Assembly: GCA_900315265.1 (NCBI GenBank)
Contig: OMYN01000008.1
Coordinates: forward strand, 1 to 64,000
Length of the DNA stretch: 64,000 nt
Direction: 5' to 3'
From: an uncultured Eubacteriales bacterium
Lineage (GTDB): Bacteria > Bacillota > Clostridia > Lachnospirales > Bianqueaceae
Shown here: positions 1 through 16,159 of the stretch, piece by piece
Layout: each line of letters begins with the position of its first letter
How positions within the stretch are numbered: position 1 is the first letter of the stretch
Program-made: the position numbers and the translations under genes
The notes under the pieces: model-generated
Databases searched by the model: none
Told to the model about the DNA's origin: nothing
The model's input: the letters and a program-made list of their open reading frames with translations, nothing else

Positions 1-1
1 T

Positions 2-877: not shown

Positions 878-879
878 TC

Positions 880-1050
880 GTATAAGGTACAGAGCAGGCA
901 GACCATGGCTGACCTTTGTGCGGAGATGGTCTCGCAGGAGACCGTCCATCTGAGCTTAGGCCGTATCCACGGCTGTATCAGCCGAAGGGTCTAAAGCCCT
1001 TTGAAGCACGCGACTTTAGTTGTGTGAGGTTCACATACACCGATGAGACC
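880..1050 (+). ncRNA. Candidate TnpB guide RNA (reRNA/omegaRNA) and IS right end
   Basis: Directly after tnpB the + strand folds into a chain of hairpins: 925-950 (GATGG...CCATC with TCTC/GAGA inside), 960-973 (GCCGT/ACGGC), 971-983 (GGCT/AGCC, competing with the previous one), 985-1002 (AAGGG/CCCTT) and 1007-1026 (CACGCGAC-TTTA-GTTGTGTG). The last hairpin is followed by AGGTTCAC at 1027-1034, the kind of hairpin-plus-short-motif that ends IS200/IS605 elements. The element would end near 1034, and the next bases (ATACACCGATGAGACC, 1035-1050) would be the guide taken from flanking DNA. Both ends are estimates; the scaffold may start inside tnpB. An open frame at 916-1140 falls here but has no family features. 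Confidence 0.6.
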
Positions 1051-1122
1051 ATTTTCATTAATATAAAAATAACACATATACTTGAACATATATACTATCT
1101 GCATAAAATATGGAATAGTCTG

Positions 1123-1151
1123 TTGAAAAAAAGGGCATGAAATTTTAAAAT
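1123..1151 (+). promoter_or_regulatory. Predicted sigma-A promoter for the cluster regulator
   Basis: TTGAAA at 1123-1128, a 17-base spacer and TAAAAT at 1146-1151. A second weaker option is TTGAAC (1082-1087), 16 bases, TAAAAT (1104-1109). The 338-base gap between tnpB and the regulator otherwise holds only the guide RNA region and A/T-rich DNA. Confidence 0.55.
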
Positions 1152-1154
1152 TAT

Positions 1155-1201
1155 ACTAAACAGAGATTAATTTAGTAAAAACAACGAAAGAATCACTAAA
1201 T
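1155..1201. promoter_or_regulatory. Repeated ACTAAA/TTTAGT words between promoter and regulator start
   Basis: ACTAAA occurs at 1155-1160 and 1195-1200 and its reverse complement TTTAGT at 1171-1176. The outer pair ATTTAGT (1170-1176) and ACTAAAT (1195-1201) forms a 7-base inverted repeat with 18 bases between. They lie just downstream of the predicted -10, a good place for autoregulation. The A/T-rich setting makes chance occurrence plausible. Confidence 0.3.
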
Positions 1202-1215
1202 GAGGGGGTCATGAA

Positions 1216-2094
1216 ATGTGGAAGAGGAGAAATAATAATGTAAAATTGTATGAAACATTTCGCGATTTTTCAGTATCGGTTCTGAGAAAATGTTATTCGG
1301 AAATCATTCAGATCGATTGTGCGAAACATCTATTAGCTGAAATCGATCCGGAAGAAGGAAAAGAACCGGTCTTTGAAAAACAGGATCAGTTGATCCCCAA
1401 GGTTTTGGAAAAACTGAGAATTCCGGGAGAAGAAAATACAAAGATCGTATACGTTCAGATTCAAAAAGTTTTTGATGAGGAGGATCGGGAAAAACTGTCT
1501 GCTTTTCGGCTAAAAGGAGAAGACGGGATCCTTTTCGAAGGGGAAGTGATGGCTTTTACTTCCTCTTTTGTTTTTCTCTGTTTTCGAGATATAACGCTTC
1601 AGGAAAAATACAGGATCCTGGAGGAACAAAGTAAGATCGAAAACCAGGAGGTAAGGCCAAAAGTCTTTGTCAGAACTTTTGGCTACTTTGATGTTTTTGT
1701 GAATGACACGCCAGTAGCCTTCAAGAATCCTAAGGCTAAGGAGCTGCTTGCACTTTTAGTCGATCACGCGGGAGGATTTATCAACAGCGAAGAAGCAGCA
1801 GGTTTGCTGTGGGGGGAAGTACCATATGATGAAAGTGTTAAGGCTAAGTACCGGAAAACGGCTTATGAACTTAGAAAGACATTAAGGGATTTAAAAATCG
1901 ACTATATTCTTTGCGAGAAGAAGGGACAACGGGGGATCGATCGTACAAGTTTTGAATGTGATTATTTTCAACTGCTGGATGGGGATAAGAAAGTAAGGGA
2001 ATCCTTTGCGGATTCCTATATGAAAGAATATGACTGGGCACAGGAAACGCTGGCAGATCTATTGGTTTTAACCAAAGAAAACGATCCGAAATGA
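1216..2094 (+). CDS. SARP/OmpR-type winged-helix transcriptional regulator of the RiPP cluster
   Basis: This 292-residue protein has an OmpR-like winged-helix domain at about residues 150-245. It opens with RTFGYFDVFVNDTPVAF, continues with KAKELLALLVDHAGG and FINSEEAAGLLWG, and resembles the DNA-binding half of SARP (BTAD) activators. Residues 20-140 are mixed alpha/beta, end in FLCFRDIT, and look PAS-like, so they may sense a signal. There is no TPR-like BTAD tail. Start ATG 1216 follows GAGGGGG by seven bases. It is the first gene of the cluster, separated by 122 bases from the biosynthetic operon, whose promoter carries phased repeats of the sort SARPs bind. Regulation of that operon is inferred from position and motif, not shown. 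Confidence 0.75.
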   Translation: MWKRRNNNVKLYETFRDFSVSVLRKCYSEIIQIDCAKHLLAEIDPEEGKEPVFEKQDQLIPKVLEKLRIPGEENTKIVYVQIQKVFDEEDREKLSAFRLKGEDGILFEGEVMAFTSSFVFLCFRDITLQEKYRILEEQSKIENQEVRPKVFVRTFGYFDVFVNDTPVAFKNPKAKELLALLVDHAGGFINSEEAAGLLWGEVPYDESVKAKYRKTAYELRKTLRDLKIDYILCEKKGQRGIDRTSFECDYFQLLDGDKKVRESFADSYMKEYDWAQETLADLLVLTKENDPK

Positions 2095-2130
2095 TTTCTG
2101 CTGAAGTATTTTTCAGAAAACGGCAGAAAA

Positions 2131-2180
2131 GGACAAACAGGAACGAATGTGAACGGACGAGAACGCAGGAAATGTATTAT
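2131..2180 (+). promoter_or_regulatory. Phased GAACG direct repeats and -10 of the biosynthetic operon (SARP-like operator)
   Basis: GAACG occurs at exactly 2141, 2151 and 2161, with a degenerate GGACA at 2131, giving four repeats on a 10-base period, one helical turn. TATTAT at 2175-2180 can serve as -10 and starts nine bases after the last repeat. No good -35 is present. Streptomyces SARP activators are known to bind short direct repeats about 11 bases apart whose last copy lies about eight bases before the -10, replacing the -35. TATAAA at 2187-2192 is an alternative -10. Confidence 0.6.
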
Positions 2181-2216
2181 TATCCGTATAAAATTTGATG
2201 CGGAGGCTTGAGTTCG

Positions 2217-3230
2217 ATGAGATATTTGATCATTTCAAATGGATGCGGGGCCGGTCATGCAGTAAGAGATTTGGTCCTGGCTGATGAAATCAGAAGGAGA
2301 AGCGATGGCGCAGAAATTTATTTTGCGTCATATGCCGCAGGGCTGTCCGTATTTCATTCCATTGGAGAAACGGTTATTGACCTGAAACAAGAGGAGCGGC
2401 CTGACCCGGATGTGATAGGGAAGGTACTGAGCCGTGTAATAAAAGAGGTACACCCGGACGTGCTGATCAGCGATGAGGTGATTGCAGCGCTGGGACATGA
2501 TCGCACGATCAAAACCTACTTTCTGACCAATCATTTGAATATTTATGAATACAGCTATGCCTACTGGGTTTGTGAAAGCATTCTTTTTGCAGAGCTTCCT
2601 GACAGTCTTGGATCATTGCTGCAGGATAGAAAGAAAATCAGAACAATCGGTCCCATTGTCCGGGAAAGATTCGATATACCGGATCTTACCGTAAGCGAGC
2701 CTTCTGACCAGTGCCTTCACGTATGGGTGGGTGGGTCGCAGTTAAAAGCCCTTCAACTTGAAAATATCTGGCTCTTCAAAAACCTCTTTGAACAGTTAGA
2801 CAACAGAAAAATCTATGTTCATGGGATAGAATATGAAAGGTTCTTTCGTAAGGTATCGCTGCCTAATGTTTTCTGGGTAGAAAGAGACTATTCTCAAAAG
2901 CCTTATCAGCAGGGCGTACAGATTACCAGAGGGGGTATTCAAACTCTATGGGAGATGGCCTTGACCGGCGCAGCGTGTATCGCTGTGCCTTATTCGGATA
3001 AAGTAAATCCGCAGGAAATAAAATATGCAAAAGTCATGGAAAAAAGAGACCTTTGTAAATTAGTGCAATACCAGGATATTCGGGAAAAAAGACTGAAAGA
3101 AGTAGTAGAAGAAGTTGAGGCGGCAAAGTCCGTAAAGTATTCCAGGTATCTTCAGAACAGAGGGTATCAATTGGTCCTGTCCTGCAGAAATGAGTGGGAA
3201 GCATGGATGAGCGAAATAACGCAGCAGTAA
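2217..3230 (+). CDS. GT-B fold glycosyltransferase, GT28/MurG-like, in RiPP cluster
   Basis: The protein has 337 residues from ATG 2217, chosen because GGAGG at 2202-2206 lies ten bases upstream; the in-frame TTG at 2208 is too close to it. The N-terminus MRYLIISNGCGAGHAVRDL matches the MurG-type glycine-rich opening where the acceptor domain begins. The C-terminal half has ITRGGIQTLWEMALTG, AACIAVPY and NPQEIKYAK, corresponding to the nucleotide-sugar binding region of GT28 and UGT enzymes. No membrane segment is seen. It heads the biosynthetic operon and overlaps the next gene by 28 bases. It probably attaches a sugar to the modified peptide, as MftF does in mycofactocin or SunS in sublancin, but donor and acceptor cannot be read from sequence. 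Confidence 0.75.
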   Translation: MRYLIISNGCGAGHAVRDLVLADEIRRRSDGAEIYFASYAAGLSVFHSIGETVIDLKQEERPDPDVIGKVLSRVIKEVHPDVLISDEVIAALGHDRTIKTYFLTNHLNIYEYSYAYWVCESILFAELPDSLGSLLQDRKKIRTIGPIVRERFDIPDLTVSEPSDQCLHVWVGGSQLKALQLENIWLFKNLFEQLDNRKIYVHGIEYERFFRKVSLPNVFWVERDYSQKPYQQGVQITRGGIQTLWEMALTGAACIAVPYSDKVNPQEIKYAKVMEKRDLCKLVQYQDIREKRLKEVVEEVEAAKSVKYSRYLQNRGYQLVLSCRNEWEAWMSEITQQ

Positions 3231-4402
3231 AGCATATTTTCAGATGGGATTTTGCATTAGAAGTATGGAATGGAAAACTTTATGCTGCCTCACAAAGCAG
3301 CGGCCTGAGGCTTCCGATCAGTAAAGTTCAAGCGTTAGCGTTAGCTTTGTTCGATGGAACAAGGACCGATGATGAAGTCGAGAACATTTGGAGCAGAATA
3401 TTTTCCGGTAAGGGTAGAAGCGCTGTTGAAACAGCATCTATCCGGTGGAACCTGCTGCTTCCGGAGAACTGTGATATGCCTCACAGCGTAAGGAAGCCGG
3501 TTACACTGGAACATTTATCGGCTATCTTGAAAAACGCGGAAGAGGATATGGGAAGGCCGATGATACCGGAGAATGTTGTTTGGAGATTTACGGATCAGTG
3601 CCGATTCTGCTGCTCCTATTGTTATGAAAAGGACTACCTTCGGAAACTGAGAAAACCACTTATTCTGAAAGAGAAAATGTCCGTTGTAGATAAGTTGTTT
3701 ATGTCCGGTGTCCGACATGTTCATTTGACGGGAGGAGACCCTTTTTGTGAAGATGATCTATACCCGATCCTTACAGAACTGCTGAAACGGAATATTCGGG
3801 TCTCTGTCTTGACCAAGTCACGGATCAATGTCGATGCAATAAGAAAGATGGAGACAAATAATCTTTCTCTTGGTTTCAGCATTGATAGTGCTGATTCGGT
3901 CATTGCAGGAAAATTAACCGGTGAAAAGGATTTTTTGCAGGGGGTGCAAAAAACGATGAGACTGCTGAAATTAAACGGAATCAAATTTTTTGCTGCTTAT
4001 ACTCTGACGCAGATGAATTATTATGATTTTGACAAGGACATGCAATGGCTTCTGGATCAAGGCACAGATAGAGTAGAAGTTACCCGGTATCAGGAAACAG
4101 GAAGAAAGCAGTCGGACCGGGAACTTTCCATTACCGATTCCATGTGGGATGAGGTAAAAAAGAAAAATGCAAGGGGAGTGCGTTTTCTGGATGACAAACC
4201 GGCACAGTGTCATTCGGGAAGGCAGTCGATGACAATTGATGCAGATGGAACGGTGATTTTCTGTGATGTTTTTCCGGATGCAGGACGTTTTGAAAATATA
4301 CGCCAGTCTTCTCTTTCAGAACTGTGGGATCAATACTCTTATAACTGCTTTTGCAGAGAAAGAGGCGGCAAATGCTATCGCTGCGAGAAAATATTTTATT
4401 AG
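3203..4402 (+). CDS. Radical SAM/SPASM peptide maturase 1
   Basis: A 399-residue protein from ATG 3203; GTG 3194 is an alternative. Residues 12-90 resemble a small PqqD-like peptide-recognition (RRE) domain, including NGKLYAASQSSGLRLPIS. The radical SAM 4Fe-4S motif is Cys133-x3-Cys137-x2-Cys140, followed by the LTGGDPF turn used for SAM binding. The C-terminus has a SPASM-like pattern: CHSGRQSMTIDADGTVIFCD, the LSELW signature, then CFC and CYRC, enough cysteines for at least one extra cluster. Such enzymes install thioether or carbon-carbon crosslinks, or epimerise residues, in peptides. It overlaps the glycosyltransferase and the next radical SAM gene, so translation is probably coupled. 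Its exact chemistry is unknown. Confidence 0.88.
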   Translation: MDERNNAAVKHIFRWDFALEVWNGKLYAASQSSGLRLPISKVQALALALFDGTRTDDEVENIWSRIFSGKGRSAVETASIRWNLLLPENCDMPHSVRKPVTLEHLSAILKNAEEDMGRPMIPENVVWRFTDQCRFCCSYCYEKDYLRKLRKPLILKEKMSVVDKLFMSGVRHVHLTGGDPFCEDDLYPILTELLKRNIRVSVLTKSRINVDAIRKMETNNLSLGFSIDSADSVIAGKLTGEKDFLQGVQKTMRLLKLNGIKFFAAYTLTQMNYYDFDKDMQWLLDQGTDRVEVTRYQETGRKQSDRELSITDSMWDEVKKKNARGVRFLDDKPAQCHSGRQSMTIDADGTVIFCDVFPDAGRFENIRQSSLSELWDQYSYNCFCRERGGKCYRCEKIFY

Positions 4403-5673
4403 GAACAGGCAGTGGACATGTTTTTCTGATTGACGACAGTCATGAAAAGCCAGAGCGTATCATTGGGAGAAAGCTTTCCGTACTTCTTTGTTATTTACTG
4501 ACAGCACCAAGTGAAGAGGCTTGTCGGGAAGCTTTACAGCAGGCAGGGATTTGCTATTCAAAGGAAGAGATCCGAAAACTTGAGATTTACTTCATCAAGA
4601 AGTTTCCCGGTGCCTTCAGTCAGGGCAGTAATGAAGGTTCCCAAAGACACGGGGCTGTAGCAAAAATGCGGATAGAAAGCGGCAGCTGTCAAAACGATCG
4701 GCTGTCATTCTTTCGTTTGGATTATCCGGTCCATTTGATTTATGTCCCTACCTGGCGCTGCAATCGAAGTTGCCGTTATTGCGGTGTCCCGAAAACCAGG
4801 GATGGAGAAAAGATCCCGGAAGACCTGTTGATTGAAAGACTGACAGAGGCTTCGAAAAAGGGATTGCAGAAGCTGGATATTCACGGAGGGGAACCTCTGT
4901 ATTACGCTTTTGAAAAAACGGAGCATTTAGTTGCAGCTATGAAGCAGGCCGAGGTGAAAACATACGTTTCGACTAAGAATCTGGTAACTGCGGAGATGGC
5001 TGAAAGGCTTAGGAAAGCAGGGCTCGATTGCATACAGCTGAGCCTTGACACGATCGATACATCGCAAGCACAGATGCTGGGGTATCCGGACGGCTATTTG
5101 GATTTTTTCAATCGTTCTTTAGAAAACATTAGAAGAGAGAACATTCCTATATCGGTGAATGTGGTCGTTTCCCAGGAAAACGAAAAAGGTTTGGAGAAAC
5201 TCCTTACTTTTCTGAAGGAAAAAAATATTGAGATGATCACTCTGTCTCCCTTGAGAAAAACAGATAAGGTCGGATTACATGAGGTCAAAGAAGAAAAGAA
5301 AGAATATCTGAATCAAAAATTAAGCAAGTTCGGTATGCGGATACCTGTTTCAGAGCCGGGTCAAAGACCGATCTGTGAGGCGGGACGAAATGGATTTCTG
5401 ATTCTTCCTAATGGTGAGTGCGCCTTTTGCGATTTTATTGCAGACCTCCCTGAGTTTCGTTTCGGAGACATCAAAACTAGTACGGTGGAAGAGATCTGGA
5501 ATGACCCGAAGCTGCTTGAATTGACCTTTCCTTCCAAGGAACGTTTGGCAGAAAAATGCCGATCGTGTGAACAAAATGAGATTTGCCGATCCAGAGGTTT
5601 TTGTTATGTAAATCAGGATTTCAGAGGAAAGGTAAAGGAGGACAGATTTTGCCTGAAAGGATGGGGAAGATGA
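4372..5673 (+). CDS. Radical SAM/SPASM peptide maturase 2
   Basis: A 433-residue protein. ATG 4372 is preferred over 4351 because GAGGCGGCAA stands before it. Residues 1-110 form a variable N-terminal region that may hold a PqqD-like recognition domain. The radical SAM motif is Cys130-x3-Cys134-x2-Cys137 (CNRSCRYC), and DIHGGEPL is the glycine-rich SAM-binding segment. The C-terminal SPASM domain is the most complete of the three: CEAGRNGFLILPNGECAFCD, VEEIWND, then CRSCEQNEICRSRGFC and a final FC, consistent with two auxiliary 4Fe-4S clusters. It differs clearly from its two neighbours, which argues for a separate reaction rather than a recent duplication. Confidence 0.9.
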   Translation: MLSLRENILLGTGSGHVFLIDDSHEKPERIIGRKLSVLLCYLLTAPSEEACREALQQAGICYSKEEIRKLEIYFIKKFPGAFSQGSNEGSQRHGAVAKMRIESGSCQNDRLSFFRLDYPVHLIYVPTWRCNRSCRYCGVPKTRDGEKIPEDLLIERLTEASKKGLQKLDIHGGEPLYYAFEKTEHLVAAMKQAEVKTYVSTKNLVTAEMAERLRKAGLDCIQLSLDTIDTSQAQMLGYPDGYLDFFNRSLENIRRENIPISVNVVVSQENEKGLEKLLTFLKEKNIEMITLSPLRKTDKVGLHEVKEEKKEYLNQKLSKFGMRIPVSEPGQRPICEAGRNGFLILPNGECAFCDFIADLPEFRFGDIKTSTVEEIWNDPKLLELTFPSKERLAEKCRSCEQNEICRSRGFCYVNQDFRGKVKEDRFCLKGWGR

Positions 5674-5677
5674 TAGC

Positions 5678-6916
5678 ATGGCCTTGAAAGAATGCTGGGC
5701 CATTCAAGTTGGTAAAGGCCGCTTGTTCTTAAAAAATACAAAACAAGAGCAGGTGTGGATCCCTCTGTCCAGTAAAGAAGCAGTAGGTATTTATTTGCAA
5801 AGCTGTGGTTTGAGTGCTGATGAAACAGTGGATTTTATGTTTCAAATGCATCTAATCAGAAACAAAGCTATGACTGCGCAAAACCTGGTCCATCGGTATA
5901 GTGTTTTTTTTAATAGTTCTGGAGAGAAACGACCAGTCGATTGGGGCTATGTAAAGAAATTACTGGCAGCAGCAGCAGTTTCACCGAAATACTTTGAGTA
6001 TCCTTTCCCCAGAGTTATGAAAGCTATTGTAACCGATCGATGCAGTGGTTTATGCAAATATTGCTATGATGAGATATACCGGAAAGCCACAGATGTACAG
6101 GAACTGAGCATTGAAGAATGGTCAAGGATCCTTAAACAGGCAGAAGAGGTCGGAATTTATCAGATGATCCTTATTGGCGGTGAACCATTCGAGAAAAAAG
6201 GGATTATGAAGGTGATCGAGGAAGCAGCAGCGGCACACATCTATGTAGAGATCGTCAGCAAGCACTTGTTTTCACAAGAAGAGGCCCAAAAGCTTGCAGA
6301 AATTCCCAGGGAATTTTTAAAAATTATTCTTAGCGCCGATCTGGTTCCCGGCCAAGAAGATGAACTGTTATATACCTTTGAAGGGGAATCTGAAAGGATT
6401 TTGCAAAGTTATAGAGAACTGAAAGCCGCAGGGATACAGCCGGCGATTCAGACAGTTGTGACAAGCAAGAATTTAAAAAGTATTCAACGATTGGTCACAT
6501 TTTATACGGATCTCGGAACAAAGGAATTTCGACTTAGTCGTTTTTGCGTGACAGAAGGAAAAGAAGATTTTTGTGTTTCCGATTCACAATGGGAGGAATT
6601 AAAGAGAAAATTGATCTCACAAAAGGACGTTGCGGTCATATGGATGTCGGAAGGAGTCGAGAAAAAGACTTCAGCTCAAGTCTGTGTGAACGGAAGTACC
6701 TGCATGGTTGTACTTCCCGATGGAGAGGTTTGTTTCTGTGACTACTTTCGCGACATACCTAATAATTACATAGGAAATCTCAAAAACAGAACTTTGCTCG
6801 ATGTTTGGAATTCGGAAATAAGAAGGGAGAGGGTGAAACAGCATGTACGCTGTTATGCCGAATTGCAATTGGAAGATCCTGCAAATTCAAAGAAAGCTGC
6901 CTTTTCTGGTTCTTGA
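5678..6916 (+). CDS. Radical SAM maturase 3 with reduced SPASM region
   Basis: A 412-residue protein starting four bases after the previous stop, behind GGGGAAG. The N-terminal 105 residues (for example WAIQVGKGRLFLKN, IYLQSCGLS) are again compatible with an RRE-like domain. The radical SAM motif is Cys122-x3-Cys126-x2-Cys129 (CSGLCKYC), and LIGGEPF follows for SAM binding. The C-terminal part keeps CVNGSTCMVVLPDG, EVCFCD and LLDVWNS, but after one more cysteine (VRCYAEL) it stops without the final CxxC group. It may therefore carry fewer auxiliary clusters than maturases 1 and 2. Its last 74 bases overlap the protease gene in another frame, which may explain the altered tail. Confidence 0.87.
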   Translation: MALKECWAIQVGKGRLFLKNTKQEQVWIPLSSKEAVGIYLQSCGLSADETVDFMFQMHLIRNKAMTAQNLVHRYSVFFNSSGEKRPVDWGYVKKLLAAAAVSPKYFEYPFPRVMKAIVTDRCSGLCKYCYDEIYRKATDVQELSIEEWSRILKQAEEVGIYQMILIGGEPFEKKGIMKVIEEAAAAHIYVEIVSKHLFSQEEAQKLAEIPREFLKIILSADLVPGQEDELLYTFEGESERILQSYRELKAAGIQPAIQTVVTSKNLKSIQRLVTFYTDLGTKEFRLSRFCVTEGKEDFCVSDSQWEELKRKLISQKDVAVIWMSEGVEKKTSAQVCVNGSTCMVVLPDGEVCFCDYFRDIPNNYIGNLKNRTLLDVWNSEIRRERVKQHVRCYAELQLEDPANSKKAAFSGS

Positions 6917-7892
6917 ATTGTGGATACCTTATGGCGCATGGGATACGGAACCGGGAAGAAGCGGAGAAGCTCATTTAGCTGAGCACGTACTGATCGGTAT
7001 CATCCGAAGAAACCTCAGTTTTTACGAACAGGTGAATTCATATGGATATACAAATTCCTATCGTATCCGTATTAGCTGGATAATGGAACCAAGCCGCTTG
7101 CAGGAGAGAATCGGGGCAATCGTTAATGACTTGAGCCGGGCAGCGCTGGATCAAAAACTATTTGATCAGGAAAAAAGTAAAGTCATTCAGGAAATAAACA
7201 CGATCAAAAAAACTGATTCACTGACATTGGTGGAAGAGGTTGAACAGATCATATATCAAAAGAAGAAAGAAGAAGTCACTGCGCAGGGTGATACACGGCA
7301 ATTGGAACAGATAGATTTCCCGTCTTTTCTCGAAAAGCTGAAGAAGGTAATGAATGAAGAAGGGATCGTCTTTACCTTGACAGGAGATATTGAGGATTTG
7401 AATCTTTTCCCAAATCGTCAGCCGTTAACGGAACATACCAGCCAAGTGTCTCTGTCTTTGAAACAAGGAAGGGATGAGATGTGCCTTTCACTGTCAACTC
7501 ATGACGGAGATATTAAAGCCTTCCGTTGGCAAATATGGGATATAGGAAGTGCGCATGCTGCAGAAATACTCGAGACTTTTCTTGAATTTCGATCGGCAGA
7601 CGAAAGGATCCGGATCCGTTCCGTCCGACACAGAAATGATATGCTCTTTATCTTTATAATTCCGAAAGATGTAAGGTCCTGGCAGGAAAAATTCAGCGGG
7701 GAGCTCTTCCAAAAAGTATACGAAATGTATTATATAGAACAACGATACCTTACGGCAGAACCTCGAAAGGAAGCAGAGAGAATAGCAGAGGATGTTTTTG
7801 AGACAACGTTTCACAAAGAAGGAAGAGAGATTTCCAGTTGGCAGATTTGGGAGCGTTTTCAGAAAATGATAAATCCGGAGGTGAAAGCATGA
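6843..7892 (+). CDS. M16-family zinc metallopeptidase (likely leader peptidase)
   Basis: The inverted zinc motif HxxEH is present as HLAEH at residues 44-48. The third ligand fits Glu117 in KVIQEINTIKKTD, aligned with the pitrilysin AELTM segment. Ligands would be His44, His48 and Glu117, with Glu47 catalytic. At 349 residues it is shorter than usual M16B proteins (about 400-430), and its second lobe is weak. Members of this family sit with radical SAM enzymes in PQQ (PqqF) and subtilosin (AlbE/F) loci. The start overlaps the preceding gene by 74 bases, behind GGGAGAGGG. Neither exporter in the cluster has a peptidase domain, so this is the best candidate to remove the leader. Confidence 0.82.
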   Translation: MYAVMPNCNWKILQIQRKLPFLVLELWIPYGAWDTEPGRSGEAHLAEHVLIGIIRRNLSFYEQVNSYGYTNSYRIRISWIMEPSRLQERIGAIVNDLSRAALDQKLFDQEKSKVIQEINTIKKTDSLTLVEEVEQIIYQKKKEEVTAQGDTRQLEQIDFPSFLEKLKKVMNEEGIVFTLTGDIEDLNLFPNRQPLTEHTSQVSLSLKQGRDEMCLSLSTHDGDIKAFRWQIWDIGSAHAAEILETFLEFRSADERIRIRSVRHRNDMLFIFIIPKDVRSWQEKFSGELFQKVYEMYYIEQRYLTAEPRKEAERIAEDVFETTFHKEGREISSWQIWERFQKMINPEVKA

Positions 7893-9601
7893 ATCAAAAA
7901 TATAGTGTTCCAACGGCTGTGGGAATAGCTGCCGGGACAATAAAAGGTATTCTTATCACATGCAATATTTATTTATTGCAGGCAATCGTGGATACGGCAG
8001 TGACAGGCAAATACTGGGATGCAATGATCCGGCTCTGCTATATGGCTGTCAGTACGGGAATCGTTCTTTTAGCGGACCTTGTTAAAAGTAAAATGATCCT
8101 GGTCCTGAATAAACGGATCGAAATCGGAGAAGGGGAATGTCTACTTAATAAAATCAGCCGTCTTCCTTATGAATTATTTGAGGACAGTGCCTTGTTCCCT
8201 AAATTCGATAGGGTCATGACGGATGGTGTGGAGCAGAAAAAAGGACTGTATCAGAGCATTTTCAATGGAGTGGAGTTTGCCGTTGAATATATCGGGATCA
8301 GTATATATGCTTGTTCTGTTAAATGGTGGTGCCTGTTAGTTATTTTCTTATTGACCATACCGGTCTGGCTGTTAACGATCGTTGGTGCTTCATCTGAAGG
8401 TAAATTTACCCAGGATAATTGGAAGTGGAATCAAAAAGCTCTTATTTTCTCTCACATCCTAAATAGCCGTGAATTTATCAAAGAAGAGAAAATATTCGGC
8501 TTTTATCCGTTGATCAGCAAAAGATGGAAAGAAAATGCCGAAAAGTACCAGCATGGAAAAATAAGAAGTTCTTTTTCTGTCAGGGTATGGATCGGTGCTG
8601 TTAATTTCCTTCAATATGCGGTCACGATCGTTCTTGCATGGCTTTTGATCCTTGATATTCGAAAAGGAAGTGTCACCATTGGTGAACTGGTAGCGACGAT
8701 GGACAGCCTTTGGAGGATGATAGGTTCAGCCTTGTTTACGGTCGTAGGTTTACTGGGCGGATTTGTCGGATATAGTGAATACGCCAAACAGCGGAAATGG
8801 TTCATGAACCTCAAGGAGGAGAAAGAAAGCGGAGAGGAACTTGAGGATATCCGCAGCGTTGAATTTCAGAATGTTTGCTATGGATACCCCGCCGAAAAAG
8901 AAGAAGACCGCCGTATGGTCCTTCAGGGTGTATCGTTCCGCATCGATCAGGGAGAAAGGACTGCCCTTGTCGGAGAGAACGGCTGTGGTAAAAGCACGGT
9001 CATTAAGCTTATGACAGGGCTTTTGAAACCGGTTTCCGGGACGATTTTGATCAATGGAAGAAATGCGGAAGATTACTCGATATCTTCCAGAAGAAGAGCT
9101 TTTTCCTGTGTTTTCCAGGATTATATGAAATATGATATTTCTCTGAAGGACAATATTCAGCTGGGGGCCCTGTGGCAAAAGGAAGATCCGTCAGAAGCGC
9201 TGAGTCGTATCGACCGGGATCTTGCAGCAAATGTGGGAGGAATGGACCAGATCTTAGGAAGATCGGTGGAAGGTGCCAGAGATGTTTCGGGAGGTCAATG
9301 GCAGAAGATCGCACTTGCCAGAGGAATTTATTCAAAGGCTTCGTTTTGGGTGCTGGATGAACCGACTGCGGCGATCGATCCGATTTCGGAACGGGACGTT
9401 ATTGAAACAATGTTGAAAGTAAGAGAGAACTGCACTAAGGTGTTTGTCACTCATAGGCTTGGATCGGTCCGTTTCATGGATAAAGTCATTGTTCTTAGAA
9501 ACGGTAAAGTAGAAAACATCGGAACACACGAAACATTGAGAAAGGAGGATCCATACTATGAAAAGCTTTACAGCACTCAGGAAAAATGGTACCGTTCGTA
9601 A
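7889..9601 (+). CDS. ABC exporter half-transporter 1
   Basis: A 570-residue membrane-ATPase fusion. ATG 7889 is chosen because CCGGAGGTGAAAGC precedes it; it overlaps the protease stop by four bases (ATGA). Residues 1-310 contain hydrophobic membrane spans (for example WWCLLVIFLLTIPVWLL, TIVLAWLLIL). The ATPase has Walker A GENGCGKST, signature VSGGQ, Walker B FWVLDEPT and a switch histidine in VFVTHRLG. There is no N-terminal C39 peptidase domain. It probably pairs with the next gene to export the finished peptide or give immunity. Confidence 0.88.
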   Translation: MNQKYSVPTAVGIAAGTIKGILITCNIYLLQAIVDTAVTGKYWDAMIRLCYMAVSTGIVLLADLVKSKMILVLNKRIEIGEGECLLNKISRLPYELFEDSALFPKFDRVMTDGVEQKKGLYQSIFNGVEFAVEYIGISIYACSVKWWCLLVIFLLTIPVWLLTIVGASSEGKFTQDNWKWNQKALIFSHILNSREFIKEEKIFGFYPLISKRWKENAEKYQHGKIRSSFSVRVWIGAVNFLQYAVTIVLAWLLILDIRKGSVTIGELVATMDSLWRMIGSALFTVVGLLGGFVGYSEYAKQRKWFMNLKEEKESGEELEDIRSVEFQNVCYGYPAEKEEDRRMVLQGVSFRIDQGERTALVGENGCGKSTVIKLMTGLLKPVSGTILINGRNAEDYSISSRRRAFSCVFQDYMKYDISLKDNIQLGALWQKEDPSEALSRIDRDLAANVGGMDQILGRSVEGARDVSGGQWQKIALARGIYSKASFWVLDEPTAAIDPISERDVIETMLKVRENCTKVFVTHRLGSVRFMDKVIVLRNGKVENIGTHETLRKEDPYYEKLYSTQEKWYRS

Positions 9602-11336
9602 TTTACGGCGCGGATGGGATTATATCTGCTATGTCTTCAAAAAATCACCGTTTATTTGCTCTGCAGATTTTTGCATGCATCTTATGGTGGTTGGTATTTG
9701 TCCGGTAGTTACTGCGACACTTTGGGGAAAATGTATCGATTCCCTTTCTACGGACCAAAGCAAATTGGGGATCCTTTTACTTATCCTTCTTTTTATAGGA
9801 GGACTAAGCAGCGGGTTTTTGTTCTGGGGTGAAATCATCGATAACTTTTATCGATGCAAAGTGTCTCTGCTGATGCAGGAAAGGATACATGAGAAAGCTA
9901 GAAGATTATCTGCCCAAGTCTATGAAAACAGCCTCGTCCGGGATATGGCGGAAAGAGCGAATAAAGTTTTCTATTATGGCCCGGCGATCAGTTTTTCGTT
10001 TTCAGGAATCATGATCCTTTCAGGTTTTGTCAGCAGTTTGCTCTCTATTATCGTATTGGCACGATACCATTACATTTATGCCTTGCTGATGCTTGGAATG
10101 CTGGCGACCGATTTAATGAAGATGTCTCTTAGCAAAAAAAGAGCTAAGGTCATAGATGGACAAACAGAAAGCAGACGATCGGCTGAGATCCTTCGGACCT
10201 ATGTGTGGAAACACGAGGCTGCTAAAGAGACCAAGATGCACCTGGCCGGCAGTTTTTTCATTGACCGATGGAAAGGTCTGACAGAAAAGATCATGACGGT
10301 AGAGTATACTTGTTTTCAAAAGATCAATCGGCAAAGTACGCTGCTTAGTCTGATATCGGGGGTACTGCTGATTGTGGGGATCGGTATCAGTATTCGTTTC
10401 CTGATCGAAGGAGAACTGACGATCGGTAGGTTTGGAACGGCGATCATCCTTTTTAGACAGTCTGAAAAATATGCGCAAACGTTTGCCGATGCACTGAGCT
10501 CTCTTAGTGGAGATCTGGAACACATTAAAGCCGGGTATGAATTTCTGGAACTTGAGGAAGCAGACGTGGACGGAACTGGGCCATCGTCTGATCCGATGAA
10601 AAAGGTACAGCTAAAACACGTTTCATTCCGTTATCCCGGTGTCGAAGCTGCTGAAGCTTTGAAAGACATTGATTTGACTTTGGAAAAAGGAAAGCTATAT
10701 GCTGTGGTAGGAGAAAACGGAGCAGGAAAGTCGACCTTGGGCAAGATCATCCTTGGTTTATATAAGCCGACAGAAGGCAGTATTTCCGTTGATGGAAAGG
10801 ATATAGTTGCAATGTCCGAAGCGGAGCGCTTTTACAGGCGTTCGGCCGTTTTTCAGGATTATAATATATATCCTTTAACGGTCAGCCAAAATATTACCTT
10901 GAGTGAAAAACCTGCAGAGTCCGTCCCTGCCTTTGTAAAGCCGGATGACCTTCTCGGCAAAGAAATCGGAGGGAAAGAACTGTCAGGCGGGCAGAAGCAG
11001 CAGATCGCGATCGCGCGGGGCAGAAATAAGAGCTCCGACCTGATCATTCTGGATGAGCCGACCAGTGCTATGGATTCCTTCACCGAAGACAAGGTTTTTC
11101 GATCCTTCCTGGATCTGTCGAAGGATAAAATATCCGTAGTTGTGACTCATCGGCTGGGTATTGCGACTCAGGCGGACCAAATCATAGTTTTGAAAGACGG
11201 AAAGGTAGAGGCTGTTGGATCCCATGACAGGCTTTTGAAAGATTGTCCTTACTATCGATTATTGTGGGACGCCGGAAAAAGTCTGTATGAGATAAATACG
11301 GACAAATTACAAGAAGGGAGGAATTCGTATGCCTGA
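9558..11336 (+). CDS. ABC exporter half-transporter 2
   Basis: A 592-residue membrane-ATPase fusion, overlapping the previous gene by 44 bases with its own AAAGGAGG site nine bases before ATG 9558. Membrane spans occupy about residues 1-320. The ATPase has GENGAGKST, LSGGQ, LIILDEPTSAMD and VVVTHRLG, so both nucleotide sites of a heterodimer could be active. It lacks a peptidase domain. Its last eight bases overlap the start of the small peptide gene, and the peptide's ribosome site lies inside its coding sequence. Confidence 0.88.
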   Translation: MKSFTALRKNGTVRNLRRGWDYICYVFKKSPFICSADFCMHLMVVGICPVVTATLWGKCIDSLSTDQSKLGILLLILLFIGGLSSGFLFWGEIIDNFYRCKVSLLMQERIHEKARRLSAQVYENSLVRDMAERANKVFYYGPAISFSFSGIMILSGFVSSLLSIIVLARYHYIYALLMLGMLATDLMKMSLSKKRAKVIDGQTESRRSAEILRTYVWKHEAAKETKMHLAGSFFIDRWKGLTEKIMTVEYTCFQKINRQSTLLSLISGVLLIVGIGISIRFLIEGELTIGRFGTAIILFRQSEKYAQTFADALSSLSGDLEHIKAGYEFLELEEADVDGTGPSSDPMKKVQLKHVSFRYPGVEAAEALKDIDLTLEKGKLYAVVGENGAGKSTLGKIILGLYKPTEGSISVDGKDIVAMSEAERFYRRSAVFQDYNIYPLTVSQNITLSEKPAESVPAFVKPDDLLGKEIGGKELSGGQKQQIAIARGRNKSSDLIILDEPTSAMDSFTEDKVFRSFLDLSKDKISVVVTHRLGIATQADQIIVLKDGKVEAVGSHDRLLKDCPYYRLLWDAGKSLYEINTDKLQEGRNSYA

Positions 11337-11475
11337 TGAAAAAGACGAACTGAATATCAAGGAACTTCAGACCCTCGTCAGTGAATTGGGCCTTGAAGAC
11401 GAGTTCGACAGCATCGAAGCAGAATACTGCGCAAGCTGCTGTGTCGTTCTTGGCGGCGGCGGGACAGGCTGCTGA
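11329..11475 (+). CDS. RiPP precursor peptide (48 aa) with Cys/Gly-rich core
   Basis: A 48-codon gene with a strong ribosome site, GGGAGG at 11316-11321, seven bases before ATG 11329. The first 33 residues form a very acidic leader: MPDEKDELNIKELQTLVSEL can form a helix of the kind recognised by RRE domains, and GLEDEFDSIEAEY follows. The last 15 residues, CASCCVVLGGGGTGC, are the likely core: four cysteines, Val-Val-Leu, four glycines and a final Thr-Gly-Cys. The CASCC spacing recalls the clustered thiol donors of sactipeptides and ranthipeptides, but I recognise no known family. It ends the operon and a terminator starts ten bases after its stop. M16 cleavage near the Glu-Ala-Glu-Tyr/Cys junction is a guess. 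Confidence 0.88.
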   Translation: MPDEKDELNIKELQTLVSELGLEDEFDSIEAEYCASCCVVLGGGGTGC

Positions 11476-11484
11476 TGTCCGGAC

Positions 11485-11514
11485 AGGGCTGCTCTTATTG
11501 AGCGGCCCTTTTTA
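11485..11514 (+). terminator. Rho-independent terminator of the RiPP operon
   Basis: AGGGC-T-GCTC, loop TTATT, GAGC-G-GCCCT, then TTTTTAT. It begins just after the precursor stop and closes the cluster. Confidence 0.85.
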
Positions 11515-11549
11515 TATGCCAAACAGAAGTAAACTGCAGTAAGAATCAG

Positions 11550-11578
11550 TTGAGAAAGTAATATAACTGTGCTAAAAT
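11550..11578 (+). promoter_or_regulatory. Sigma-A promoter for ychF
   Basis: TTGAGA at 11550-11555, 17 bases, TAAAAT at 11573-11578, about 80 bases before the ychF start. Confidence 0.65.
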
Positions 11579-11657
11579 AGTACCTTGTATTATGCCAAAA
11601 ATTTATTAACACAGAAAAGAGCAGCGCTTTGCACTTGTTCTGTAAGGAGATAGAGAA

Positions 11658-12755
11658 ATGAAATTAGGAATCGTAGGACTGCCTAACGTAGGCAAGAGTA
11701 CTTTGTTTAACTGTCTGACCAAAGCCGGAGCCGCACAGGCAGCCAACTATCCTTTCTGCACCATCGAGCCCAACATTGGCATCTCGGCTGTTCCGGATCC
11801 TCGTCTGGATGTGCTGACAAAGATGTACGATTCTAAAAAGACCACTCCCGCTATCATCGAATTCGTCGATATCGCAGGCTTGGTAAAAGGCGCCAGCAAA
11901 GGCGAAGGTCTGGGCAACCAGTTTCTGTCTCATATCCGTGAATGCGATGCCATTATTCATGTAGTACGCTGCTTTGAAAATGACGATATCATCCATGTGG
12001 ACGGCAGTATCGATGCTATGAGGGATATCGATACCATCAACATGGAGCTGATGCTGGCCGATCTGGATGTCCTGGAGCGCCGCAGGGCTAAGGTCGCAAA
12101 GGCAGCTAAACTGGATAAGACCGCTCAGCCGGAACTGGACCTGATCGAAAAATTGATGAAGGGCCTGGAGAAAGGCACCCGTGTTAAAAACATTCCGCTG
12201 ACTGATGATGAAAAGACTCTGGCGGATACCTTTGAGCTGCTTAGCGCAAAACCTGTTATCTATGCGGCCAACGTAGACGAAGATGATCTGTCCAATGACG
12301 GCGTTGATAACGAGCAGGTGCAGAAGGTCCGCGCATATGCCAAAGAACAGGGCGAAGAAGTCTTCGTTGTCTGCGCGAATATCGAGGAAGAGATCGCGGC
12401 ACTGGAACCGGATGAAAAGAAAGAATATCTGGAAGAACTGGGAGTCAAATCCTCCGGCCTTGACCGTCTGATCGCGGCTAGCTATCATCTGCTGGGTCTG
12501 ATCAGCTTTTTGACCTGCGGGCCGGATGAGAGCCGGGCCTGGACTATTAAAAAAGGTACACTGGCTCCTCAGGCTGCCGGTAAGATCCATACCGATTTTG
12601 AACGCGGTTTCATTCGCGCAGAGGTCGTTTCTTTTGACGATCTAAACCGCCTGGGTTCTATGAACGCTGCCCGTGAAAAGGGTCTGGTCCGTTCAGAGGG
12701 CAAGGATTATGTGATGAAAGACGGAGATGTGGTTCTGTTCCGTTTCAATGTCTGA
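11658..12755 (+). CDS. ychF: Redox-regulated ATPase YchF (Obg-like)
   Basis: The 365-residue length is the family norm. The P-loop GLPNVGKST is at residues 7-15 and FVDIAGLVKGASKGEGLGN is the switch II region. The C-terminus carries a TGS domain (FLTCGPDESRAW, IHTDFERGFIRAEV). YchF is an ATP-preferring Obg-family protein tied to ribosomes and stress responses. An AAGGAGATAG site precedes ATG. The gene begins the conserved host region after the accessory cluster and is far richer in CGT/CGC arginine codons than the cluster. Confidence 0.97.
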   Translation: MKLGIVGLPNVGKSTLFNCLTKAGAAQAANYPFCTIEPNIGISAVPDPRLDVLTKMYDSKKTTPAIIEFVDIAGLVKGASKGEGLGNQFLSHIRECDAIIHVVRCFENDDIIHVDGSIDAMRDIDTINMELMLADLDVLERRRAKVAKAAKLDKTAQPELDLIEKLMKGLEKGTRVKNIPLTDDEKTLADTFELLSAKPVIYAANVDEDDLSNDGVDNEQVQKVRAYAKEQGEEVFVVCANIEEEIAALEPDEKKEYLEELGVKSSGLDRLIAASYHLLGLISFLTCGPDESRAWTIKKGTLAPQAAGKIHTDFERGFIRAEVVSFDDLNRLGSMNAAREKGLVRSEGKDYVMKDGDVVLFRFNV

Positions 12756-12830
12756 TACAGCAGCCGGGCATTTACAGCCAGACCAAATGAAAATAGTAAA
12801 TCAAGCCAGGTAAGTAGAAAGGTTTTGTAA

Positions 12831-14462
12831 GTGGAACAGAATTATAGAGTTTCGGAAAGCGATCGCCAGGCTATCGAAAAAAGGCGCACCTTCGCGATCA
12901 TTTCCCACCCGGATGCCGGTAAAACGACGCTGACGGAAAAGCTGCTCTTATACGGAGGAGCTATCGTAGAAGCCGGTATGGTGAAAGGCAAAAAGAACAT
13001 GCGCCATGCGGTTTCGGACTGGATGGAGATCGAAAAGCAGCGCGGTATTTCGGTCACCTCTTCGGTCATGCAGTTCAAATATAACGGCTACTGTATTAAT
13101 ATCCTGGATACTCCCGGACATCAGGATTTCTCTGAGGATACCTACCGTACCCTGATGGCAGCGGATTCAGCCGTCATGGTCATCGACGGTTCTAAAGGGG
13201 TTGAGGCCCAGACCCGCAAATTGTTCAAGGTCTGCCGTATGCGCGGCATCCCGATTTTTACCTTCATCAACAAGATGGACCGTGAGGCCAGGGACAGTTT
13301 CGATCTGATGGCAGACATTGAAGACAACCTTGGTATTGAAACCTGTCCGATCAACTGGCCGATCGGAAGCGGCAAGAGTTTTCAGGGAGTATACGACCGG
13401 CTCAACCGGAAGATGCTGAAGTTTATGTCCGATGGCTCCGACATAGGCAGCGCTGTCAGCGGTGCCCATGAGATCGATCAGATCAGCATCGAACTGGACG
13501 ATCCCAAGCTTGGGGACATTATCGGACAAGGGCCTCTTGATCAGCTGAAAGAGGAGATCGACCTGTTGGACGGAGCGGGACATGAGCTGGATATGGACAT
13601 GGTCCGCAAGGGAGAACTGTCGCCGGTCTTCTTCGGATCGGCCCTGACTAACTTTGGTGTCGAGCCCTTTCTGAAAGAGTTTTTGAATATGACGACCTCC
13701 CCCCTGCCCAGGCAGGCCCAGGAAGAAGTGGTCGATCCTTTCGATAGCCGTATGACCGGCTTCGTTTTCAAGATCCAGGCCAACATGAACAAGGCCCACC
13801 GTGACCGGGCTGCCTTCATCCGCATCTGTTCAGGTGTCTATGAAAAGGGCATGCAGGTCTACCATACCCAGGAAGGCAAGACCATCCGTCTGTCCCAGCC
13901 TACCCAGCTGATGGCCCAGGACCGGTCGATCGTGGATAAAGCGTGGGCAGGCGATATCATCAGTGTATTCGATCCGGGGATCTTTTCCATCGGAGATACC
14001 ATCTGTGATCCATCCCATGTCATTCATTATGAGGGTATCCCCACCTTTGCTCCGGAGCATTTCTGCCGGCTGCGTCCTGAAGATTCTCTGAAAAGAAAGC
14101 AGTTCATCAAAGGTACATCTGAAATCGCCCAGGAGGGTGCCATCCAGGTCTTCAAAGAGCCTGAGGGCGGTATGGAAGAGGTAATTATCGGTGTCGTGGG
14201 TACTCTTCAGTTTGATGTTATGCAATTCAGACTGAAAACGGAGTATAATGTCGATGTGCGGATGGAGATGCTTCCCTATGAGCATATCCGCTGGATGACC
14301 AGCAGTGATATGGATCCTAAGGAGCTGACCCTTACCAGTGATACCAAAGTGGTGATGGATATGAAGGATCATTACCTTCTTCTGTTTGCCAGCGATTGGA
14401 ATATCGACTGGGCCCTGAAGCACAATCCAGGCCTTGAACTGGCCGAATTCAGCCGCGGCTGA
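12831..14462 (+). CDS. prfC: Peptide chain release factor 3
   Basis: A 543-residue translational GTPase starting with GTG. The P-loop reads SHPDAGKTTLTEKLLLYGGAI, then MEIEKQRGISVTSS (switch I), DTPGHQDF (G3) and NKMDRE (G4). RF3 removes RF1 and RF2 from the ribosome after peptide release. It is followed 20 bases later by glnS on the same strand. Confidence 0.96.
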   Translation: MEQNYRVSESDRQAIEKRRTFAIISHPDAGKTTLTEKLLLYGGAIVEAGMVKGKKNMRHAVSDWMEIEKQRGISVTSSVMQFKYNGYCINILDTPGHQDFSEDTYRTLMAADSAVMVIDGSKGVEAQTRKLFKVCRMRGIPIFTFINKMDREARDSFDLMADIEDNLGIETCPINWPIGSGKSFQGVYDRLNRKMLKFMSDGSDIGSAVSGAHEIDQISIELDDPKLGDIIGQGPLDQLKEEIDLLDGAGHELDMDMVRKGELSPVFFGSALTNFGVEPFLKEFLNMTTSPLPRQAQEEVVDPFDSRMTGFVFKIQANMNKAHRDRAAFIRICSGVYEKGMQVYHTQEGKTIRLSQPTQLMAQDRSIVDKAWAGDIISVFDPGIFSIGDTICDPSHVIHYEGIPTFAPEHFCRLRPEDSLKRKQFIKGTSEIAQEGAIQVFKEPEGGMEEVIIGVVGTLQFDVMQFRLKTEYNVDVRMEMLPYEHIRWMTSSDMDPKELTLTSDTKVVMDMKDHYLLLFASDWNIDWALKHNPGLELAEFSRG

Positions 14463-14482: not shown

Positions 14483-16159
14483 ATGAGCAGTGAAGACCAC
14501 AAAGTAACATTCCCCCTGCCGGAACCGGAAAACTTTATCGAACGTGAGATCAACGCTGATCTGGAGGCGCATATCAACGACCGTGTCCAGACCCGTTTCC
14601 CGCCGGAGCCCAACGGCTATATGCACATCGGACATATCAAGGCTATCTGTGTAGATTTCGGGACAGCTGAGAAGTACGGGGGCATCTGCAACCTCCGCTT
14701 CGACGACACGAATCCCAGCAAGGAAAACACGGAGTATGTGGACAGTATCATGGATGATATCCGCTGGATGGGATTCAAGTGGAACCATGTATATTACGCG
14801 TCCGAGTATTACGATAAACTGTATGAATTTGCCATCCTGCTGATCAAAAAGGGCCTGGCTTATGTCGATGACCTGACCCAGGAACAGATGCACGAGTACC
14901 GGGGCACCCTGACCGAGCCCGGTAAAAACAGCCCTTACCGTGACCGCACGGTGGAGGAGAACCTGGACCTGTTCCAGCGTATGAAGAACGGTGAGTTCAA
15001 AGAGGGAGAAAAGGTCCTGCGTGCCAAGATCGATATGGCTTCTCCCAACATGAACATGCGCGACCCGGCTATGTACCGTATTTCCTATACACCTCATCAC
15101 CGCACGGGTACCAAGTGGTGTATTTATCCCATGTACGATTTTGCCCATCCTCTGTCAGACGCATTGGAAGGAGTCACTTATTCTCTGTGCAGTTTTGAGT
15201 TTGAGGATCACCGCCCCTTGTACAACTGGTTCGTTCAGCAGGTTGGATGTTTTAAGGAGCCGCCCCGTCAGATCGAGTTTTCTCGTATGGAGATCACCAA
15301 TGTTGTGACCTCCAAGCGTAAGCTGCGTGCCTTGGTCGAAGATCATATCGTCAGCGGCTGGGACGATCCCCGCATGCCTACTCTGGCTGGCCTTCGCAAA
15401 CGCGGCTATACGCCGGCTTCCATCAAGAAGTTCATCGCCGATACCGGTGTTGCCAAATCCAGAGGAGCGACCATCGACTACCGTTTCCTGGAATATTGCA
15501 TCCGCGATGATCTGAAACTGAGCCAGAAGCGTATCATGGCCGTGCTGGATCCTTTAAAGGTCGTTGTAGACAACTATCCGGAGGGTCAGGTCGAATATTT
15601 CGAGGTAGCCAATAACCCCGAAAACGAGGCTCTGGGCAGCCGCAAGGTTCCTTTCTCCAAAGAGCTTTACATCGAACGGGATGATTTTATGGAAGTTCCG
15701 GTCAGCAAGTTCAAGAGAATGGCTCCCGGCCGTGAGGTACGCCTGATGGGCGCTTATATAGTTAAATGCGAATCCGTCGATAAGGACGAAAACGGCAATA
15801 TCACCTGCGTTCATGTCACCTATGATCCCGAGAGCCGGGGAGGAAATCCGGCGGACGGCCGCAAGATCAAAGGTACTATCCATTATGTAGCAGCAGGCAC
15901 AGCCAAGCAGGCTGTCGTTCGTATATACGACCAGCTCTTTGTGATGGACGAGGCCTCCGGTGACTATGTCGCCAACCCCGATTCTGTTACCATCATGGAT
16001 AAGGCAGTCGTTGAACCTTCTATCTGTGATGAACCTTTGGGGACCCGTTTCCAGTTCGTCCGCAGCGGCTACTATATCACCGATCCGGACGACTCCAAAG
16101 ACGGCAAGCTGGTCATCAACCAGATCGTACCGCTGAAGAGTTCCTACAAACCGGAATAA
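14483..16159 (+). CDS. glnS: Glutaminyl-tRNA synthetase
   Basis: A class I synthetase of 558 residues. The HIGH motif appears as PNGYMHIGHIKAI and the KMSKS counterpart as VVTSKRKL. The GlnRS/GluRS signature RFDDTNPSKE and a C-terminal beta-barrel anticodon domain are present. It charges tRNA-Gln directly. Many Bacillota lack this enzyme and use the GatCAB amidation route, so its presence narrows the host somewhat. GAGAGGAATTT precedes ATG 14483. Confidence 0.97.
   Translation: MSSEDHKVTFPLPEPENFIEREINADLEAHINDRVQTRFPPEPNGYMHIGHIKAICVDFGTAEKYGGICNLRFDDTNPSKENTEYVDSIMDDIRWMGFKWNHVYYASEYYDKLYEFAILLIKKGLAYVDDLTQEQMHEYRGTLTEPGKNSPYRDRTVEENLDLFQRMKNGEFKEGEKVLRAKIDMASPNMNMRDPAMYRISYTPHHRTGTKWCIYPMYDFAHPLSDALEGVTYSLCSFEFEDHRPLYNWFVQQVGCFKEPPRQIEFSRMEITNVVTSKRKLRALVEDHIVSGWDDPRMPTLAGLRKRGYTPASIKKFIADTGVAKSRGATIDYRFLEYCIRDDLKLSQKRIMAVLDPLKVVVDNYPEGQVEYFEVANNPENEALGSRKVPFSKELYIERDDFMEVPVSKFKRMAPGREVRLMGAYIVKCESVDKDENGNITCVHVTYDPESRGGNPADGRKIKGTIHYVAAGTAKQAVVRIYDQLFVMDEASGDYVANPDSVTIMDKAVVEPSICDEPLGTRFQFVRSGYYITDPDDSKDGKLVINQIVPLKSSYKPE

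What the first reader, a model, noticed from the sequence alone, without database searches (positions are those of the whole stretch)
11329..11475. Hidden 48-codon precursor gene at the far end of the operon
Seen: ATG 11329 with a strong GGGAGG site, an acidic 33-residue leader, and tail CASCCVVLGGGGTGC. The gene is short, starts inside the exporter gene, and is easily missed by gene callers. Its last-but-not-first position in the operon is less usual. The core mixes clustered thiols (CASCC) with a Gly4 stretch and a C-terminal Thr-Gly-Cys, which suggests several crosslinks; Cys-to-alpha-carbon thioethers are one option.
Basis: partly seen in the sequence, partly recalled or inferred. Interest (0 to 1): 0.88.

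Follow-up and report, generated by a model that had tools for sequence, protein, structure and literature searches.

The report
Hidden precursor of a modified peptide
A very short gene at the end of an operon with three radical SAM enzymes almost certainly encodes the raw peptide that those enzymes turn into a cross-linked, exported natural product; two relatives of it, found in the same arrangement, show it is a real gene of a small, undescribed peptide family.

Summary
Confirmed. Frame 11329-11475 (48 aa) exists as described: AAGGGAGG ribosome site, 7-nt spacer, 8-nt overlap with the exporter gene, and an intrinsic terminator 10 nt after the stop. Two homologues show that it is a gene: a same-genus genome (Lachnospiraceae MAG20; 71% identical, no indels, changes by codon position 8/11/24) and a paralogue on another contig of the same genome (51%). 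In all three, the peptide is the last gene after an ABC exporter, before a hairpin. Leader (LEDEFD) and core (C..CC....GG...C) are conserved, and no rival short frame is. The operon reads: regulator, GT28-type glycosyltransferase, three radical SAM/SPASM proteins, M16-type protease with HxxEH, two ABC exporters, precursor.

Best explanation: precursor of a radical-SAM RiPP (new subfamily). The enzymes probably cross-link core cysteines, more likely to alpha-carbons (Gly/aliphatic) than to Asp/Asn/Thr side chains, which the orthologous core lacks. The M16 protein would remove the leader and the ABC pair would export the product. The chemistry is inferred. The precursor matches no Pfam or NCBIfam family, and no relative was found outside the genus in about 570 sampled genomes. 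Most novel open reading: a cross-linked peptide also glycosylated on cysteine.

The parts
11329..11475 (+). precursor peptide gene: leader residues 1-33, core CASCCVVLGGGGTGC (residues 34-48); the leader/core boundary is assumed, not shown
11314..11321 (+). ribosome-binding site AAGGGAGG, 7 nt before the ATG
   Evidence: read from sequence; counterpart AAAGGAGG in the orthologue
11485..11514 (+). intrinsic terminator (10-bp stem, T-run) closing the operon
   Evidence: fold -20.1 kcal/mol, z -4.2
9558..11336 (+). ABC exporter 2 (57% identical to the exporter next to the orthologous precursor)
7892..9601 (+). ABC exporter 1 (67% identical in the orthologous locus)
6843..7892 (+). single-unit M16-type protease: HLAEH at residues 44-48 plus Glu117; candidate leader peptidase
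5678..6916 (+). radical SAM protein 3 (CSGLCKYC; SPASM model matched only over 52 of 67 positions)
4381..5673 (+). radical SAM/SPASM protein 2 (CNRSCRYC; full SPASM match; N-terminal RRE-like domain by fold). The longest open frame starts at 4351
3194..4402 (+). radical SAM/SPASM protein 1 (CRFCCSYC; 45% identical in the orthologous locus)
2217..3230 (+). GT28-type glycosyltransferase (49-51% in the orthologous locus; a 26-31% relative in a second RiPP locus of this genome)
1216..2094 (+). putative winged-helix regulator (SARP-like by eye, no Pfam match), first gene of the operon, 55% identical in the orthologous locus

Best explanation
11329-11475 is the precursor gene of a radical-SAM RiPP. 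Shown: a conserved coding frame with a conserved acidic leader and a cysteine/glycine core; a conserved place after the ABC exporter and before a terminator; and an operon of a regulator, GT28-type glycosyltransferase, three radical SAM proteins with SPASM-type C-termini, an M16-type protease with its zinc motif, and two ABC exporters. Inferred: the maturases bind the leader through N-terminal RRE domains and form thioether crosslinks from the core cysteines, most likely to alpha-carbons of Gly or aliphatic residues. The M16 protein cuts the leader and the ABC pair exports the product. The glycosyltransferase may add a sugar. The product is probably a bacteriocin-like or signalling peptide.
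For: Homologues and the paralogue, all directly after ABC exporters. Coding-type substitution pattern. The orthologous operon is split over two contigs that carry regulator, GT, rS1 and the start of rS2 on one, and ABC1, ABC2 and precursor on the other. Three CxxxCxxC/SPASM proteins. Top fold matches of the rS1 and rS2 models include the RiPP maturases SuiB, SkfB and CteB; the rS2 alignment with SkfB runs from model residue 4 and with SuiB (5v1t) from residue 6, so it includes the N-terminal domain. M16 motif. No competing conserved short frame. The review PMC8326336 gives RRE plus SPASM/twitch as the usual make-up of RiPP radical SAM enzymes.
Against: No transcript, peptide or product is known. 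The contig break in the relative hides its rS3 and protease. The structure models are of modest confidence (mean pLDDT 58 and 64), and the N-terminal domains of rS1 and rS3 remain unproven as RREs. All three radical SAM proteins score far below the curated cut-offs of the listed family models. The paralogous locus is cut off before any maturase gene, so pairing with the full set of maturases is seen only here.
Confidence: 0.88

Rival explanations
1. Ranthipeptide-type product: the radical SAM enzymes link cysteines to beta- or gamma-carbons of side chains rather than to alpha-carbons.
For: Clostridial host group; cysteine-rich core; such enzymes also carry RRE and SPASM.
Against: Ranthipeptide acceptors named in the review are Asp, Asn and Thr. 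The orthologous core CGQCCIILGGGGVGC contains none of these. No SCIFF or other ranthipeptide precursor model matched.
Confidence: 0.12
2. The peptide is primarily glycosylated (glycocin-like), and the radical SAM enzymes make another change such as epimerisation or carbon-carbon links.
For: A GT28-type glycosyltransferase sits inside the conserved operon in both genomes, and a relative sits in a second RiPP locus. Two radical SAM enzymes can act together on one substrate, as with TrnC/TrnD (PMC12093266).
Against: Three radical SAM enzymes and conserved clustered cysteines argue for more than glycosylation. The GT is of a different family from glycocin synthases (own knowledge: SunS is GT2).
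Confidence: 0.1
3. A small metal-binding or other unmodified cysteine-rich protein that happens to end the operon.
For: CxxCC motif; no product known.
Against: Cys-free acidic leader plus Cys/Gly tail, and exporter linkage in three loci, fit a precursor far better. No Pfam or NCBIfam match to any such protein.
Confidence: 0.04
4. A chance open frame in the 3' end of the operon.
For: 48 codons alone are not significant.
Against: Conserved frame, third-position-biased changes, conserved ribosome site, and a paralogue.
Confidence: 0.01

Closest known systems
Sactipeptides, StsA/StsB (streptosactin) type
   Same: Short leader-core precursor with Cys and Gly, radical SAM/SPASM maturase. Radical SAM protein 3 has StsB as its second-best NCBIfam model (71.6 bits). 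The same genome holds an StsA/StsB-like locus with a related glycosyltransferase.
   Different: The precursor matches no sactipeptide model; three maturases instead of one; glycosyltransferase, M16-type protease and double ABC exporter; maturases far below the StsB cut-off of 625 bits.
Subtilosin A system (AlbA with the AlbEF protease complex)
   Same: Sactisynthase with RRE; a dedicated protease complex AlbEF (reference cited; its M16 type is my own knowledge).
   Different: One protease gene of M16 type here instead of two; three radical SAM proteins; precursor last, not first (own knowledge for subtilosin); no similarity of the precursor to any NCBIfam model.
Thuricin CD (TrnC/TrnD)
   Same: More than one radical SAM enzyme; TrnC and TrnD act as a complex (PMC12093266).
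   Different: Two precursors and two enzymes there; one precursor, three enzymes and a glycosyltransferase here.
Mycofactocin and glycocins
   Same: RiPPs whose pathways include a glycosyltransferase (PMC7491314 and PMC12457901, listed).
   Different: Different glycosyltransferase families (own knowledge) and unrelated precursors.

Membership tests
radical SAM-modified RiPP | leader-core precursor gene linked to radical SAM/SPASM enzyme genes | tested here: met
   same operon in this genome, gene order consistent in the relative
radical SAM-modified RiPP | RRE domain in a maturase | tested here: inconclusive
   rS2: strands then helices, fold alignment with SkfB and SuiB that includes the RRE region; rS1 low confidence; no Pfam PqqD match
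radical SAM-modified RiPP | enzymatic modification of the core | not testable with these tools
   needs co-expression and mass spectrometry
sactipeptide | Cys sulfur to alpha-carbon thioether | not testable with these tools
   compatible acceptors (Gly, and aliphatic residues in two of the three cores) are present
sactipeptide | maturase or precursor scores above a curated sactipeptide model | tested here: not met
   best 71.6 bits against StsB cut-off 625; precursor no match
ranthipeptide | conserved Asp/Asn/Thr acceptors in the core | tested here: not met
   absent from the orthologous core CGQCCIILGGGGVGC
ranthipeptide | SCIFF or PapB-type family model match | tested here: inconclusive
   the precursor matched no such model; these models were not among the best 25 listed for the three maturases, but the lists were cut at 25
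glycocin | glycosyltransferase of the known glycocin family acting on the core | tested here: not met
   the operon GT matches the Pfam GT28 C-terminal domain only; activity not testable
lanthipeptide | dehydratase/cyclase genes in the cluster | tested here: not met
   none among operon genes 1216-11475

The most novel reading that the evidence does not exclude
A hybrid RiPP: a polycyclic thioether peptide made by three cooperating radical SAM enzymes that is also sugar-modified by a dedicated GT28-type enzyme. Since the orthologous core has no Ser, Thr, Tyr or Asn, a sugar on the core side chains would most likely have to sit on cysteine sulfur, which would join sactipeptide and glycocin chemistry in one product.
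Probability: 0.2. Interest if true: 0.75.

Novelty: new variant of a known kind. Interest (0 to 1): 0.56.

Why it matters
The operon without its precursor could not be tested; with the substrate named, a four-gene co-expression (precursor plus three maturases) becomes possible. It adds a rare precursor family to Clostridia with an unusual enzyme set (three radical SAM proteins, a glycosyltransferase, a single M16-type protease), and the conserved end-of-operon position next to the exporter tells genome miners where to look for missed precursors.

Tried and rejected
Wider homologues: none found for the precursor outside the genus. Searches were 19 family genomes, 295 of the order, 274 of the class, IMG/VR twice, plasmids and phages; the weak extra hits lie inside long frames, cover only part of the model or carry stops, and were taken as chance. 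Relatives of the glycosyltransferase: only the same-genus MAG, in 392 genomes of the order and in the GTDB 220 scan, which needs exact short motifs. Protease: only this genome in 391 of the class; its absence from the relative cannot be judged because of the contig break. rS1 and rS3: no close relatives in the order apart from the MAG for rS1. Missing maturases for the paralogue: the other SPASM genes checked are not tandem and not at a contig end next to an exporter; two other exporter loci have no plausible precursor. A glycosyltransferase relative with a solved structure: none by sequence. Rfam: nothing in 1-13000. Plasmid search with rS2 gave only PqqE-like enzymes at 25%.

Full report
Observation. 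The frame 11329-11475 encodes MPDEKDELNIKELQTLVSELGLEDEFDSIEAEYCASCCVVLGGGGTGC. It has the ribosome site AAGGGAGG with a 7-nt spacer, and it starts 8 nt before the end of the exporter gene 9558-11336. Ten nucleotides after its stop comes a 10-bp hairpin with a T-run that folds at -20.1 kcal/mol, z -4.2. It is therefore the last gene of the operon.

Is it a gene? A search of the genome in which the window lies found a paralogue on contig C3, MQEKTEINFEELKELVKQMHLEDEFDLMEIGRCSSCCDKCNGGNC (E 8.3e-9). One of six other genomes of the genus has an orthologue, MLAETDELTIEELQELVDELGLEDEFDNIEAEICGQCCIILGGGGVGC (E 3.4e-18). Window and orthologue align without gaps; differences fall 8/11/24 on the three codon positions (binomial P 0.002). 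NG86 gives dN 0.21 with saturated dS, and YN00 gives 0.29 against 0.70. The three peptides share LEDEFD in the leader and C..CC....GG...C in the core, with a gap in the paralogue.

Place of the gene. In all three loci the peptide comes directly after an ABC exporter gene and before a hairpin. The overlap with the exporter is 8 nt here and 20 nt in the orthologue; in the paralogue there is a gap of about 20 nt (the overlaps and the hairpins of the two relatives were read from those sequences). No other short frame of the operon is conserved except shadows of large genes. A window-wide scan for short frames with a ribosome site and a Cys-rich tail gave this frame and one spurious one.

The operon. 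Genes in order: 1216-2094, putative regulator (no Pfam match); 2217-3230, GT28-type glycosyltransferase; 3194-4402, 4381-5673 and 5678-6916, radical SAM proteins with SPASM domains; 6843-7892, M16-type protein with HLAEH and Glu117; 7892-9601 and 9558-11336, ABC exporters; then the precursor. The relative shows the same order on two contig ends: regulator 55%, GT 49%, rS1 45%, rS2 45% (cut) on one, and ABC1 67%, ABC2 57%, precursor on the other. Its rS3 and protease would lie in the gap and are not seen.

The maturases. All three have CxxxCxxC. The SPASM model is matched in full by rS2 and only over 52 of 67 positions by rS3. AlphaFold models from alignments of five and six sequences are of modest confidence (mean pLDDT 57.8 and 64.2). 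Foldseek ranks the RiPP maturases SuiB, SkfB and CteB at or near the top for both. For rS2 the structural alignment with SkfB starts at residue 4 and with SuiB (5v1t) at residue 6, so it includes the N-terminal strand-helix domain where RREs sit. For rS1 the N-terminus stays inconclusive.

Which crosslink? Ranthipeptide acceptors named in the review PMC8326336 are Asp, Asn and Thr. The orthologous core CGQCCIILGGGGVGC has none of them, while Gly and aliphatic residues are conserved between it and the window core, so alpha-carbon thioethers are the better guess. This is inference. The membership test for sactipeptides fails on the curated models (StsB 71.6 bits against a cut-off of 625; precursor no match), so the product is not filed as a sactipeptide.

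The glycosyltransferase. It is conserved in the operon of both genomes. A relative (26-31% identical) lies in a second RiPP locus of this genome on contig C34. There an StsB-like maturase (E 6.9e-51, below cut-off) stands next to a 34-residue peptide ending KCGCGCGGHNGEGAGC that weakly matches StsA (1.9e-4), with PqqD, signal peptidase-like and ABC genes. Both the window core and the C34 core end in Gly-x-Gly-Cys. The orthologous core lacks Ser, Thr, Tyr and Asn, so a sugar on its side chains would most likely have to be on Cys. Whether the enzyme acts on the peptide at all is unknown.

Distribution. Outside the genus no relative of the precursor was found in samples of the family, order and class or in viral, plasmid and phage collections. 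The glycosyltransferase was found only in the MAG. The system is rare, or its relatives have diverged too far.

Verdict. It is the precursor of a radical SAM RiPP of an undescribed subfamily. The modification, cleavage and function are inferred from gene content and not shown.

Noticed in passing
L025 (G000:C34) 5101-10369, precursor 7483-7587: A second RiPP locus in the same genome, StsA/StsB-like: glycosyltransferase, radical SAM, 34-aa precursor ending KCGCGCGGHNGEGAGC, PqqD, signal peptidase-like protein, ABC exporter. Its glycosyltransferase is related to the window's.
   Followed up: partly
L009 (G000:C3) 14994-15128, - strand: A paralogous precursor with a five-cysteine core (RCSSCCDKCNGGNC) directly after an ABC exporter cut off by the contig end; no maturase genes visible.
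   Followed up: partly
window 3194-6916: The three radical SAM proteins differ in their C-terminal Cys sets: rS2 matches the full SPASM model, rS3 only part of it, which suggests different auxiliary clusters and division of labour.
   Followed up: partly
window 1-877: A TnpB/IS605 OrfB-like reading frame, open at the window's start, lies just upstream of the operon; the Pfam match is weak (E 0.018).
   Followed up: no
L024 8012-8550 (G004:C10 end): The rS2 frame of the relative meets an early stop close to the contig end although similarity to the window protein continues further; probably an assembly-edge error or a frameshift.
   Followed up: no
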